A DNA stretch of 64,000 bases from Actinospineispora spinosispora DSM 44797. GTDB lineage: Bacteria > Actinomycetota > Actinomycetes > Mycobacteriales > Pseudonocardiaceae. Under the pieces are notes generated by a model, which saw only the letters and a program-made list of their open reading frames with translations, was not told where the DNA came from and searched no databases. The first letter of the stretch is position 1; every line of letters starts with the position of its first letter. Made by a program: the position numbers and the translations under genes. The stretch covers positions 434,001-498,000 of the forward strand of contig NZ_AUBB01000006.1 in the NCBI RefSeq assembly GCF_000429025.1. The letters run 5' to 3'. This document shows, piece after piece, positions 2 to 17,623 of this stretch.

Positions 2-1081
2 CTGGGGCTCGGTGAGCAGTTCGCCGCGCTTCCGAAACGTCTGGTGGACCATGTCACGATGCAGACCGACGCCGGCACGGTCGAACTCGACCTGCAGGGG
101 CTACCCGGCGCGCATCAGCACATCGCGATGGTCCCGCAGTGGGACTTCCTCGAGCTGCTCGCCACCGACGCGGCGCGGGAGCCCAGCTTCACCCTGCGCC
201 ACAACTGTGAGGTGACGGGGCTGCTCACCGAGCGTGGCCGGGTCGTCGGGGTGCGTTACCAGGAGCGAGGCGCCGAGGACGGTGCTCCCCTGGGGCCGGA
301 GCGGGAGTTGCGGGCCGAGCTGACCGTGGCGTGCGACGGGCGTGGGTCGCTGGTGCGGGAGAAGACGGGGCTGCGCAGCCGAGTGTTCGGCGCACCGATG
401 GATGTGTGGTGGTTCCGGTTGCCGCGCGAGGCCGACGATCCGGTGGGTGCGGTCGGGCGGCTGTCCACCGGGCAGTTCGCGGTCATGCTGGACCGGGGCG
501 ACTACTGGCAGTGCGCGTACCTCATCCGCAAGGGCAGCGACGCGGGCCTGCGCTCCGAGGGCGTCGAGTCGCTGCACCGCCGGTTCGCCGAGCTGCACCC
601 GTGGCTGGCCGACCGAATGGGCACGATCGGCAGCTGGGACGACGTGAAGCTGCTGGCGGTGCGCCTCGACCGGGTGCGGCGCTGGTACGCCGAAGGGGTC
701 CTGCTCATCGGCGACGCCGCGCACGCGATGTCGCCGGTCGGCGGCGTCGGCATCAATCTTGCCGTCGCCGACGGTGTCGCCGCCGCCCGTATCCTCGCGG
801 GACCGCTGCGTGCGGGCCGGGTGACGCTGGCCGACCTGCGGCGAGTCCAACGACGCCGGTGGTGGCCGACCGCGGTGATCCAGCGTGGCCAACGGCTCAT
901 CCACCGGTTCGTCATCGAACCCGAGCTGAGTGCGACGTCCGGCCGATCCTCGGGCACCCGCCCGCCCCTGGCCCTTCAGCTGCTGCGGCGGGTGCCCGTG
1001 CTGCGTTCCGTCCCGGGCTACCTGGTGGCGATCGGTCCGCTGCCCGAACACGCACCGTCCTGGGCCCGCCGCCGGGTCTGA
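2..1081 (+). CDS. FAD-dependent monooxygenase, 5' end outside window
   Basis: The reading frame is open from the first bases of the window, so the N-terminal Rossmann GxGxxG segment is missing. About 359 residues remain. Near residue 236 of the fragment it carries the LLIGDAAHAMSP motif and downstream GVGINLAVADG that bind the FAD pyrophosphate in the PHBH/aromatic-hydroxylase family, and earlier a DG motif (VACDGRGS). This supports an aromatic or polyketide hydroxylase-like flavoprotein; the substrate cannot be told. Its last 64 bases overlap the 3' end of cimA on the opposite strand, so the two genes converge with no room for a separate terminator. Confidence 0.85.
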   Translation: MGLGEQFAALPKRLVDHVTMQTDAGTVELDLQGLPGAHQHIAMVPQWDFLELLATDAAREPSFTLRHNCEVTGLLTERGRVVGVRYQERGAEDGAPLGPERELRAELTVACDGRGSLVREKTGLRSRVFGAPMDVWWFRLPREADDPVGAVGRLSTGQFAVMLDRGDYWQCAYLIRKGSDAGLRSEGVESLHRRFAELHPWLADRMGTIGSWDDVKLLAVRLDRVRRWYAEGVLLIGDAAHAMSPVGGVGINLAVADGVAAARILAGPLRAGRVTLADLRRVQRRRWWPTAVIQRGQRLIHRFVIEPELSATSGRSSGTRPPLALQLLRRVPVLRSVPGYLVAIGPLPEHAPSWARRRV

Positions 1082-2706
1082 TCCCGCTGCGCGGCGAACG
1101 TCAGCGCGTCCACCAGCGCCAGCCAGGACGCTTCCACCACATTGCCGTGCACGCCGACCGTCGTCCACGAGCCGCCGCCCTCCGCGGCGGAGTCGGTCGA
1201 CTCCACCAGGACCCTGGTGACCGCCTGAGTGCCGTGGTCGCCCTGCTTCGGGTTGAGGATCCGGACCTTGTAGTCGGACAGGTCCACGTCCCGAAGCCAC
1301 GGGCAGGAGGGCGTGAGCGCCGAGCGCAGCGCCGCGTCGAGCGCGTTGACCGGACCGTTGCCCTCCTCGGTCGCGATGACCCGGTGACCATCCACGGCCA
1401 GCTTGACCGTCGCCTCCGCGACCACCTCGCCGTCCGCTCGCCGCTCGGTGATCACCCGGTAGGACTCCAGCTCGAACGGCGCGGCCGGCGCGCCGTCCGC
1501 ATCGACCGCCGTACGCATGAGCAGCTCCAACGAGGCATCGGCCGCTTCGAACGACCAGCCCTGGGCCTCGCGCTCCTTGACCGTCGCGACGACCGCCGAC
1601 ACGGCCTGGGGGTGACCGGCCAGGTCGAGGCCGAACTCGGCGCCCTTGAGCTCGACACTCGCCCTGCCCGCCATCTCGGTGACCAGCACTCGCTGGCCGT
1701 TCCCGACGACCGTGGGGTCCATGTGGTTGTACAGCTCGGGGTCGACCTTGATCGCGCTCGCGTGCAGCCCGGCCTTGTGCGCGAACGCGGACGCCCCCAC
1801 GTAGGCCTGGTGCGTGTCCGGCGCGATGTTGGCGATCTCCGCCAGCGTGTGCGCGGTCCGGGTCAGCTCGACGAAGCTGCCCTCCGGCAGCACCGGCATG
1901 TCGAGCTTCGTCACCAGGTTGCCGATCACCGCGAACAGATCGGCGTTGCCGGCCCGTTCGCCGTAGCCGTTGGCGGTGCACTGCACGTGGGTGGCGCCGG
2001 TCTGCACTGCCGCGATGCTGTTGGCCACCGCGCACCCGGTGTCGTCCTGGCAATGGATGCCCAGCCGGAACCCGGTCCGCTTCGCCACCTCGCCGACGAT
2101 CTCGGCGACCCGCAGCGGCAGCATCCCGCCGTTCGTGTCGCACAGGACAGCCACGTCCGCTCCGGCGGTCACCCCGGCGTCGAGCACCCGCAGCGCGGTC
2201 TCCGGGTCGAACAGGTACCCGTCGAAGAAGTGCTCGGCGTCCAGGAACACCCTGCGTCCTTCCGCGCGCAGCAGGGCGACCGTGTCCGCGACCATCGCGC
2301 AGCTCTCCACGACATCGGTACGCAGCGCGCGCTCGATGTGCCTGCGATCGGACTTCGCGACCAGCGTCACGACCCGCGCTTCGGAGTCGAGCAGCGCGCG
2401 CACCTGCGGGTCCTCGTCGGCTCGGACACCCGCCTTGCGGGTGGCGCCGAACGCGACCAGCGCGGCGTGCCGCAGCTCCAGCTCACCGGCCGCCGCCCGC
2501 GCGAAGAACTCGGTGTCCTTCGGCAACGCTCCTGGCCAACCGCCCTCGATGAACCCCACACCGAGCGCATCGAGGTGGCCCGCCACGGCGAGCTTGTCGG
2601 TCACCGAGTAGCTGATGCCCTCACGCTGGGCACCGTCCCGCAGCGTCGTGTCGTAGACGTGGAAAGCATCTCCGAGTGGGGTGCCGGTGGGCGTTGTACG
2701 GGACAT
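1018..2706 (-). CDS. cimA: (R)-citramalate synthase
   Basis: A 562-residue DRE-TIM metallolyase that condenses pyruvate with acetyl-CoA to citramalate, the threonine-independent entry to isoleucine synthesis. The N-terminal signature DTTLRDGAQREG is at residues 19-30. The TIM barrel is followed by the C-terminal LeuA-type allosteric domain (about 400-540). Length and order fit the actinobacterial CimA group rather than 2-isopropylmalate synthase. At 218-220 the usual metal-binding HxH reads HCQ. An Ile-rich leader ORF and an intrinsic terminator lie directly upstream, which supports a role in isoleucine synthesis and indicates attenuation control. Homocitrate synthase-like function is the main alternative. 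Confidence 0.88.
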   Translation of the reverse strand: MSRTTPTGTPLGDAFHVYDTTLRDGAQREGISYSVTDKLAVAGHLDALGVGFIEGGWPGALPKDTEFFARAAAGELELRHAALVAFGATRKAGVRADEDPQVRALLDSEARVVTLVAKSDRRHIERALRTDVVESCAMVADTVALLRAEGRRVFLDAEHFFDGYLFDPETALRVLDAGVTAGADVAVLCDTNGGMLPLRVAEIVGEVAKRTGFRLGIHCQDDTGCAVANSIAAVQTGATHVQCTANGYGERAGNADLFAVIGNLVTKLDMPVLPEGSFVELTRTAHTLAEIANIAPDTHQAYVGASAFAHKAGLHASAIKVDPELYNHMDPTVVGNGQRVLVTEMAGRASVELKGAEFGLDLAGHPQAVSAVVATVKEREAQGWSFEAADASLELLMRTAVDADGAPAAPFELESYRVITERRADGEVVAEATVKLAVDGHRVIATEEGNGPVNALDAALRSALTPSCPWLRDVDLSDYKVRILNPKQGDHGTQAVTRVLVESTDSAAEGGGSWTTVGVHGNVVEASWLALVDALTFAAQRDQTRRRAQDGACSGSGPIATR

Positions 2707-2759: not shown

Positions 2760-2789
2760 AAAAAAGACCCCTCGCGAATGCGAGAGGTC
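2760..2789 (-). terminator. Attenuator terminator upstream of cimA
   Basis: On the minus strand, a 10-bp stem GACCTCTCGC/GCGAGGGGTC (one T-G pair) with a 4-nt loop is followed at once by six T residues. It sits between the Ile-rich leader ORF and cimA, about 54 nt before the start codon. Upstream, GCGCGCCGGGT at the end of the leader can pair with ACCCGACGCGC just before the terminator (one mismatch), as expected for the pause hairpin of a ribosome-mediated attenuator. Confidence 0.85.
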
Positions 2790-2811
2790 TGCGCGTCGGG
2801 TGCTGGTGCTG

Positions 2812-2856
2812 CTACCCGGCGCGCTCCGCAATAATGATCACAGACTGAAGTGCCAC
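2812..2856 (-). CDS. Isoleucine-rich leader peptide of cimA
   Basis: A 14-codon ORF reading MALQSVIIIAERAG followed by TAG. It has three consecutive Ile codons preceded by Val. A GTG at 2841 would give the shorter MIIIAERAG. No Shine-Dalgarno sequence precedes the GTG at 2856, but a TACTGT -10 hexamer ends 7 nt upstream, so the transcript probably begins with the start codon (leaderless). Stalling on the Ile run when isoleucyl-tRNA is scarce would be expected to prevent the terminator at 2760-2789 from forming. Confidence 0.75.
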   Translation of the reverse strand: MALQSVIIIAERAG

Positions 2857-2863
2857 GTCGCCG

Positions 2864-2869
2864 ACAGTA
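2864..2869 (-). promoter_or_regulatory. Predicted -10 element for the cimA leader transcript
   Basis: TACTGT (TANNNT class) on the minus strand, 7 nt upstream of the leader GTG. The same 7-nt spacing is seen for the ilvB leader. No good -35 hexamer is visible. It lies inside the spacer just after the NTF2-like gene stop. Confidence 0.5.
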
Positions 2870-13919: not shown

Positions 13920-17400
<3,481 letters not shown>

Positions 17401-17480
17401 CGCTTGCTCTGCCTCGTTGTCTGAATCTGGTCGGATGACTTATCGGGATCGGGCTGTCGCGGCTGGCGTGCTCGTGGCAC

Positions 17481-17519
17481 AAAAAAGCCCTCGCGGCCGC
17501 GGGTCGGCGGAGCGAGGGT
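17481..17519 (-). terminator. Attenuator terminator upstream of ilvB
   Basis: On the minus strand CCCTCGC pairs with GCGAGGG, with an inner CCGC/GCGG stem, and is followed by CTTTTTT. It lies between the leader ORF and ilvB, 81 nt before the ilvB start. Confidence 0.85.
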
Positions 17520-17539
17520 TGCGCGTCGACTGAAACCTC

Positions 17540-17587
17540 TCAGGCGTCGACGCGCCGGAGAAGTACGAGGTCGACAATGCGTGGCAT
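17540..17587 (-). CDS. Branched-chain-rich leader peptide of ilvB
   Basis: A 15-codon ORF, MPRIVDLVLLRRVDA, ending TGA; seven of 15 residues are Ile, Val or Leu. No Shine-Dalgarno sequence is present. The -10 hexamer ends 7 nt before the ATG, so the RNA is probably leaderless. GCGCGTCGAC inside the ORF is perfectly complementary to GTCGACGCGC downstream, forming the pause hairpin expected to compete with antitermination. Attenuation of ilvB by such peptides is known in other actinobacteria. Confidence 0.85.
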   Translation of the reverse strand: MPRIVDLVLLRRVDA

Positions 17588-17594
17588 GCCACTG

Positions 17595-17623
17595 ACCGTA
17601 ACCGGCCTCCCCGCGACGGTCAA
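17595..17623 (-). promoter_or_regulatory. Sigma-70-type promoter of the ilvBNC leader
   Basis: TTGACC (17618-17623) - 17 nt - TACGGT (17595-17600) on the minus strand, then 7 nt to the ATG of the leader peptide. This is a near-consensus housekeeping promoter with a predicted transcription start at the ATG. Confidence 0.8.

What the first reader, a model, noticed from the sequence alone, without database searches (positions are those of the whole stretch)
2760..2869. Ile-rich leaderless leader peptide and attenuator controlling cimA
Seen: a TANNNT -10, a 14-codon ORF with Val-Ile-Ile-Ile, a pairing segment and a strong terminator with a T tract, all in 110 bp upstream of cimA. Attenuation of ilvB-type operons by such peptides is known in actinobacteria. 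I do not recall it described for citramalate synthase. It would tie the threonine-independent isoleucine route to charged tRNA-Ile and gives independent evidence that this gene makes isoleucine precursors.
Basis: partly seen in the sequence, partly recalled or inferred. Interest (0 to 1): 0.75.

Follow-up and report, generated by a model that had tools for sequence, protein, structure and literature searches.

The report
Isoleucine-codon attenuator before citramalate synthase
Upstream of a gene that matches citramalate synthase lies a tiny reading frame with three isoleucine codons followed by two RNA hairpins, a layout conserved in most of the related actinobacteria examined; it is predicted to let the cell raise this route to isoleucine when charged isoleucine tRNA runs short.

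Summary
On the minus strand, 2869-2760, lie TACTGT 7 nt before GTG, a 14-codon ORF (MALQSVIIIAERAG*), hairpin P1 and an 11-bp terminator with six T, 53 nt before cimA (TIGR00977, above cut-off). A covariance model built from 55 cimA leaders (52 picked by a hairpin pattern alone) matches 76 of 90 cimA loci drawn class-wide, 72 of 86 without four repeats. Both helices covary (90 double-change cells, 19.5 shuffled; again in 73 model-found leaders). Of 130 leaders all have an Ile codon and 122 two or more; 95 have a -10 hexamer 6-7 nt before an in-frame start (2.5% shuffled). The same scaffold precedes ilvB with Val/Leu codons (0 of 36 with two Ile) and leuS with Leu codons: codons follow the gene. 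Best reading: a leaderless, tRNA-Ile-sensing transcription attenuator, sister to known actinobacterial ilvB leaders; I found no report for cimA. Stalling, read-through and response to isoleucine are inferred. No conserved antiterminator was found: with the first five P1 bases removed, the terminator still forms in 124 of 127 folds. Some orthologues lack the element, including all 8 loci seen in one family. A new member of a known kind.

The parts
2864..2869 (-). -10 hexamer TACTGT (TANNNT), 7 nt before the leader start codon
   Evidence: sequence; YANNNT 6-7 nt before an in-frame start in 95 of 130 leaders against 2.5% in shuffles
2812..2856 (-). leader ORF, GTG start, MALQSVIIIAERAG*; probably leaderless
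   Evidence: frame open further upstream; Ile codons conserved in cimA leaders
2830..2838 (-). three Ile codons ATC ATT ATT
   Evidence: two or more Ile codons in 122 of 130 leaders
2815..2824 (-). P1 hairpin, 5' arm GCGCGCCGGG
   Evidence: fold; covariation in the upper part, lower GCGC nearly invariant
2791..2800 (-). P1 hairpin, 3' arm CCCGACGCGC
2765..2790 (-). terminator hairpin AGACCTCTCGC / ATTC / GCGAGGGGTCT
   Evidence: fold; covariation; -19.3 kcal/mol
2760..2765 (-). T tract of the intrinsic terminator
   Evidence: sequence
1018..2706 (-). cimA, citramalate synthase (the predicted target)
   Evidence: TIGR00977 577.5 bits, cut-off 450

Best explanation
The segment 2869-2760 (minus strand) is a conserved leader in front of cimA that likely works as a leaderless, ribosome-mediated transcription attenuator sensing charged tRNA-Ile. 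Shown: mini-ORF with Ile codons, a -10 spacing that fits a start codon at the 5' end, two covarying hairpins of which the second has the form of an intrinsic terminator, and conserved position before cimA. Inferred: with isoleucine plentiful the ribosome runs through the Ile codons and leaves, P1 closes and the terminator ends most transcripts before cimA. With isoleucine short the ribosome would stall at ATC ATT ATT; the Ile run ends 5 nt before P1, so by a typical footprint (recalled) it would sit on the near-invariant GCGCG arm, keep P1 open and favour read-through. How an open P1 would defeat the terminator is not established.
For: R1 matches 76 of 90 cimA loci from a class-wide draw; four of the 76 repeat the window or A1 rows (L111, L118, L194, L232), leaving 72 of 86. 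In all 76 the cimA motif lies downstream on the same strand, 99-296 nt from P1. By genome, 240 of 296 have cimA (E <= 1e-100), 213 an R1 match anywhere, 203 both. Covariation: 55 leaders (54 distinct), 96.3% of cells paired, 12 pairs with changes on both sides, 90 such cells (shuffled 19.5, 0 of 500), slid versions 4-14; 73 leaders found with the model, 95.1%, 187 cells (shuffled 39.1). Ile: two or more in 122 of 130 against 13% of shuffles (345 of 2600) and 4 of 130 windows 50 nt upstream; in the 52 leaders picked by hairpin pattern alone, 48 have two or more and 52 have one; all 55 of A1 in one frame relative to P1. In the last two Ile codons of A1 (columns 34-39) third positions change C/T far more than positions 1-2. 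Codons follow the gene: two or more Ile in 112 of 130 cimA leaders (frame chosen by I+L+V), 0 of 36 ilvB, 0 of 4 leuS. -10 spacing 95 of 130. Precedent: S. lividans ilvL (MRTRILVLGKRVG) is reported leaderless with a Rho-independent-like terminator (PMC8079986, passages); disrupting the M. tuberculosis ilvB1 leader terminator eased the mutant phenotype (PMC13236596, passages).
Against: No antiterminator found: duplexes of the P1 loop/3' arm or the leader with either terminator arm are no better than shuffles (mean z +0.17 to +0.77); among the 45 top column pairs of a pairing scan 5 are known pairs and the others form no run (a weak test, since 16 of 21 known pairs are not among them either); the terminator persists in 124 of 127 folds with the P1 5' GCGCG removed. 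The opposite strand also gives two or more Ile codons in 60 of 130 windows (three or more in 3, against 59 on the sense strand), because ATCATTAT reads ATAATGAT there. P1 has a C-A mismatch in the window. All 8 fetched loci of family f30 lack the element, and 37 of 240 cimA genomes have no match under filters that lose weak ones. Substituting regulatory codons of the S. coelicolor ilvB leader is reported to have had no effect (cited in PMC1262725). I have no expression data for cimA.
Confidence: 0.82

Rival explanations
1. The hairpin is only the terminator of the upstream gene (DUF4440/SnoaL-like, ending at 2877), and the mini-ORF is incidental.
For: The upstream ORF lies on the same strand and ends 7 nt before the -10 hexamer.
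Against: In relatives the element keeps its place before cimA (76 of 76 with cimA downstream), with conserved Ile codons and -10 spacing, which a plain terminator would not need. I did not annotate the upstream neighbours of the relatives.
Confidence: 0.04
2. The RNA is a ligand- or protein-binding leader (riboswitch-like); the reading frame is not translated for sensing.
For: Lower P1 GCGC is nearly invariant without covariation, as a binding site would be; no antiterminator found.
Against: No Rfam match at gathering score; coding signature in the Ile codons and a codon identity that follows the downstream gene on one scaffold.
Confidence: 0.08
3. The leader ribosome acts on cimA translation or mRNA stability rather than on transcription termination.
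For: Translational attenuation of cysteine genes in M. smegmatis is mentioned in PMC13236596 (passages).
Against: A strong hairpin with T tract is conserved and covaries; in the window it ends 53 nt before the cimA start.
Confidence: 0.06

Closest known systems
Actinobacterial ilvB leaders (Seliverstov 2005, PMC1262725; S. lividans ilvL, PMC8079986)
   Same: Short leader ORF with branched-chain codons, leaderless start (reported for S. lividans), hairpin plus U-tract terminator; the cimA-trained model matches 29 of 30 ilvB loci at E <= 0.5 and 27 at E <= 0.01, and the window's own ilvB leader at 17473-17592.
   Different: Target is cimA; codons are Ile runs, where 35 of 36 ilvB leaders have both Leu and Val and none has two Ile.
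ilvB-II motif / C. glutamicum ilvBNC attenuator (PMC10272879, PMC11109978, PMC11857589)
   Same: P1 plus terminator and a leader ORF with branched-chain codons; proposed antiterminator between the P1 region and the terminator 3' arm.
   Different: Described only from Corynebacterium and before ilvB (passages read); such a pairing is no better than shuffles here.
leuS attenuators of Streptomyces (PMC1262725, PMC8079986)
   Same: Leucine-codon leaders match the cimA-trained model in 4 loci; in 3 of the 3 tested the next gene is leuS above cut-off (the fourth, L267, is cut short and named by eye).
   Different: Leu codons, aminoacyl-tRNA synthetase target; reading frame shifted relative to P1 in all 4.

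Membership tests
Ribosome-mediated transcription attenuator | short leader ORF with codons of the end product | tested here: met
   Ile codons in 130 of 130 leaders, two or more in 122
Ribosome-mediated transcription attenuator | intrinsic terminator between leader ORF and gene | tested here: met
   covarying stem plus T tract, by sequence; termination itself not measured
Ribosome-mediated transcription attenuator | mutually exclusive antiterminator | tested here: inconclusive
   no conserved alternative helix; terminator kept in 124 of 127 masked folds; single duplexes with the terminator 3' arm of median -12.5 kcal/mol exist but shuffles do as well
Ribosome-mediated transcription attenuator | leader is translated and read-through responds to the amino acid | not testable with these tools
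   needs expression data
Actinobacterial ilvB-type leaders | leaderless start | tested here: met
   by -10 spacing only, 95 of 130 against 2.5%; no mapped 5' end
Actinobacterial ilvB-type leaders | shared P1-terminator scaffold | tested here: met
   R1 matches 27 of 30 ilvB loci at E <= 0.01
T-box or other Rfam leader family | match to the covariance model | tested here: not met
LEU element (leuA pseudoknot) | pseudoknot closed by Leu codons and Shine-Dalgarno box | not tested
   not compared

The most novel reading that the evidence does not exclude
One ancestral two-hairpin RNA scaffold with exchangeable codon cassettes runs the branched-chain pathway of Actinomycetota: Ile cassettes before cimA (and before leuB upstream of cimA in Acidimicrobiaceae and similar genomes), Val/Leu cassettes before ilvB, Leu cassettes before leuS, and it switches transcription without a classical antiterminator, through opening of the P1 hairpin itself.
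Probability: 0.35. Interest if true: 0.7.

Novelty: new member of a known kind. Interest (0 to 1): 0.55.

Why it matters
It is a widespread control element that Rfam does not hold and that I did not find described: before cimA in 72 of 86 non-repeated class-wide loci. The Ile-only codons give evidence, independent of protein homology, that these cimA genes serve isoleucine, although the genome here also has IlvA. The sister leaders on one scaffold make codon-to-gene matching directly testable by swapping cassettes, and the missing antiterminator poses a clear mechanistic question that also concerns the disputed ilvB leaders.

Tried and rejected
Classical antiterminator: duplex scans of P1 loop/3' arm and of the leader against both terminator arms with shuffles, a pairing scan over columns of A1, of which I saw the top 45, and masked folds gave nothing conserved. 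In one search the forced 'no terminator' fold left both arms wholly unpaired in every case shown; I distrust that constraint and use only its terminator energies. A pairing of the P1 3' arm with the terminator 3' arm seen by eye in the window is not general.

Own-genome hit G000:C3:230004 (26.5 bits, E 5.7e-4), next to ABC-transporter-like ORFs (by eye), was set aside as likely chance. L072 and L109 matched the first pattern but not the architecture and were dropped before A1; L004, L014, L015 were added by hand after I had seen their Ile codons. L077 shows an Ile run but no R1 match. The pattern fixed part of the P1 3' arm and the terminator, so invariance of those columns in A1 is partly built in; A3 was fitted to the model, and R1 includes the Ile columns, so the 75 later leaders are not blind to Ile; the 52 pattern-picked ones are. 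Among 131 elements 127 are distinct; two A3 rows (L194, L232) equal A1 rows L043 and L047. Before two repeats (L249, L268) were dropped.

ilvA: TIGR01127 gave no hit above cut-off, but the best ORF is IlvA by NF006390 and TIGR02079, above cut-off; no R1 match lies there at E <= 10.

Full report
What is there. On the minus strand, between an upstream DUF4440/SnoaL-like gene that ends at 2877 and cimA that starts at 2706, the sequence shows TACTGT, seven bases, a GTG-started 14-codon ORF MALQSVIIIAERAG*, a hairpin P1 overlapping its end, and a terminator-like hairpin with six T. The frame is open further upstream, so the start codon is assigned by the -10 spacing. The leader folds better than all 200 shuffles (z -4.84). 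cimA is above the TIGR00977 cut-off. No Rfam family reaches its gathering score. The best cimA match in genome contigs is Pseudonocardia kujensis at 82% identity, so the genome is probably a Pseudonocardia (inference; records very near the window may be left out there).

Conservation. I took the upstream regions of 108 cimA loci (L001-L110 and the window; three loci gave no motif). A pattern for the P1 3' arm and terminator, written after reading the sequences but without any Ile term, gave 54 matches; two were dropped and three added by hand, leaving 55 for alignment A1. Of the 52 pattern-picked leaders 52 have an Ile codon in the seven codons before P1 in the best of three frames and 48 have two or more; the three added by hand all have two or more. 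In all 55 the frame relative to P1 is the same. In columns 34-39 third positions vary between C and T (11 and 18 of 55 off the commonest letter) more than positions 1-2 (0 to 7). ATT makes up 171 of 316 leader Ile codons against 488 of 2515 in cimA coding regions of 136 loci of all sources and 4 of 88 in four window genes.

Covariance model R1 was applied to 90 cimA loci drawn class-wide: 76 have a full-length match, all with the cimA motif 99-296 nt downstream of P1 on the same strand; four repeat the window or A1 rows, leaving 72 of 86. The 14 misses include all 8 fetched loci of family f30 and, by eye, loci where another reading frame runs close up to cimA (L123, L182). By genome, 240 of 296 carry cimA at E <= 1e-100, 213 carry an R1 match anywhere at E <= 0.01 (stricter filters), 203 both, 37 cimA only, 10 R1 only; an R1 match can be a sister leader. 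The 20 genomes listed without cimA, of 56, and the 20 listed without R1, of 83, are all family f8; one f8 genome has a weak R1 match.

Covariation. In A1, 21 pairs give 96.3% paired cells, 12 pairs with changes on both sides and 90 such cells; shuffles reach 19.5 on average and none of 500 the observed value; sliding the partner by 1-3 columns drops pairing to 38-57%. In 73 leaders found with R1 the figures are 95.1%, 15 pairs and 187 cells against 39.1. The lowest P1 pairs, GCGC with GCGC, hardly vary.

Ile codons against controls. In 130 leaders (window counted once), best of three frames: two or more Ile in 122; mono-shuffles 345 of 2600; the stretch 50 nt further up 4 of 130; the opposite strand 60 of 130, though three or more in only 3 against 59 on the sense strand.

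Promoter. An in-frame start with YANNNT 6-7 nt upstream occurs in 95 of 130 leaders, 2.5% in shuffles, with a sharp peak at those spacings. This is the leaderless pattern; I saw no mapped 5' end for these genes.

Codon identity follows the gene. R1 also finds weaker relatives. In the window's genome these precede ilvB (window 17473-17592, MPRIVDLVLLRRVDA*) and a 92-aa ORF with a leader MLPREIIGPRTG*. Elsewhere, next genes tested are ilvB (5 of 5 above cut-off), leuS (3 of 3) and second cimA copies (2 of 2). In 30 ilvB loci R1 matches 29 at E <= 0.5 and 27 at E <= 0.01. Counting codons before P1, with the frame chosen by I+L+V together, two or more Ile occur in 112 of 130 cimA leaders, 0 of 36 ilvB leaders and 0 of 4 leuS leaders; 35 of 36 ilvB leaders have both Leu and Val. 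Two f31 leaders read MRTRILVLG, the start of the published S. lividans ilvL (PMC8079986, passages). In records named Acidimicrobiaceae, Ilumatobacteraceae or only actinobacterial, the scaffold lies before cimA (L088 MKSLSASEIIIIC*, L100 MHAPTSIGIT*) or 1.1-2.3 kb before it, in front of a leuB above cut-off in 7 of 7 tested. Of those seven leaders, four have a run of three Ile; L082 is Val-rich with one Ile, L084 has one Ile and L090 alternates Val and Ile.

Mechanism. The Ile run ends five bases before P1 in the window, so a ribosome stalled there would by a typical footprint cover GCGCG (recalled geometry). Closed P1 would then go with termination and open P1 with read-through. What an open P1 does is unresolved: no alternative helix is better than chance or shows up as a run of co-varying columns, and the terminator survives masking in 124 of 127 folds. 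The ilvB-II model puts the antiterminator between the P1 loop and the terminator 3' arm (PMC10272879, passages); that pairing is possible here (median -12.5 kcal/mol) but shuffles do as well. Codon substitutions in S. coelicolor ilvB are reported without effect (PMC1262725, parts 1-2 of 3), a warning for the whole group; in C. glutamicum terminator mutations raise ilvBNC expression (PMC11857589, sections 12 and 14) and in M. tuberculosis disrupting the ilvB1 terminator eases a phenotype (PMC13236596, passages).

Physiology. The genome also encodes IlvA above cut-off, without an R1 match there. So the predicted control falls on the citramalate branch and not, by this element, on threonine deamination.

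Literature. Searches combining citramalate synthase, citramalate or cimA with leader peptide, attenuation, uORF, leaderless or isoleucine, and SCO5529 and isoleucine codons gave no title or abstract that describes it; lists were capped (20 of 32, 20 of 38, 20 of 379, 15 of 143, 15 of 18). The one paper holding citramalate synthase, attenuation and leader peptide (PMC13158618, passages) is about Methanothermobacter; it cites work in which cimA deletion leads to isoleucine auxotrophy. PMC1262725 (parts 1-2) and the passages found in PMC8079986, PMC11109978 and PMC8632094 show no cimA leader. Subscription papers and supplements were not seen.

Noticed in passing
window 17473-17600 (-): Second attenuator in the window, before ilvB (15481-17400 -): TACGGT, 7 nt, ATG leader MPRIVDLVLLRRVDA*, GCGCG/CGCGC hairpin and terminator; 37.3 bits to R1.
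   Followed up: partly
L178:310-757 (G000:C3:654609-654712): Same scaffold with leader MLPREIIGPRTG* before a 92-aa ORF; only sub-threshold similarity to acetolactate synthase small subunit (16.1 bits, cut-off 119) and no Pfam match.
   Followed up: partly
L259, L260 (G218, G143): Second cimA-like genes (TIGR00977 above cut-off) with their own Ile-rich leader of the same scaffold.
   Followed up: partly
L076, L082, L084, L086, L090, L098, L101: The scaffold lies 1.1-2.3 kb before cimA, in front of leuB (7 of 7 above cut-off), suggesting a leuB-cimA operon under one leader; four of the seven leaders have a run of three Ile.
   Followed up: partly
family f30 loci L198, L202, L212, L219, L222, L228, L235, L236: cimA present but no such leader found; possible loss or replacement of the control.
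   Followed up: no
window 2830-2838 and relatives: ATT is over-used among leader Ile codons (171 of 316) compared with cimA coding regions (488 of 2515), although ATC and ATT are read by the same tRNA (recalled).
   Followed up: partly
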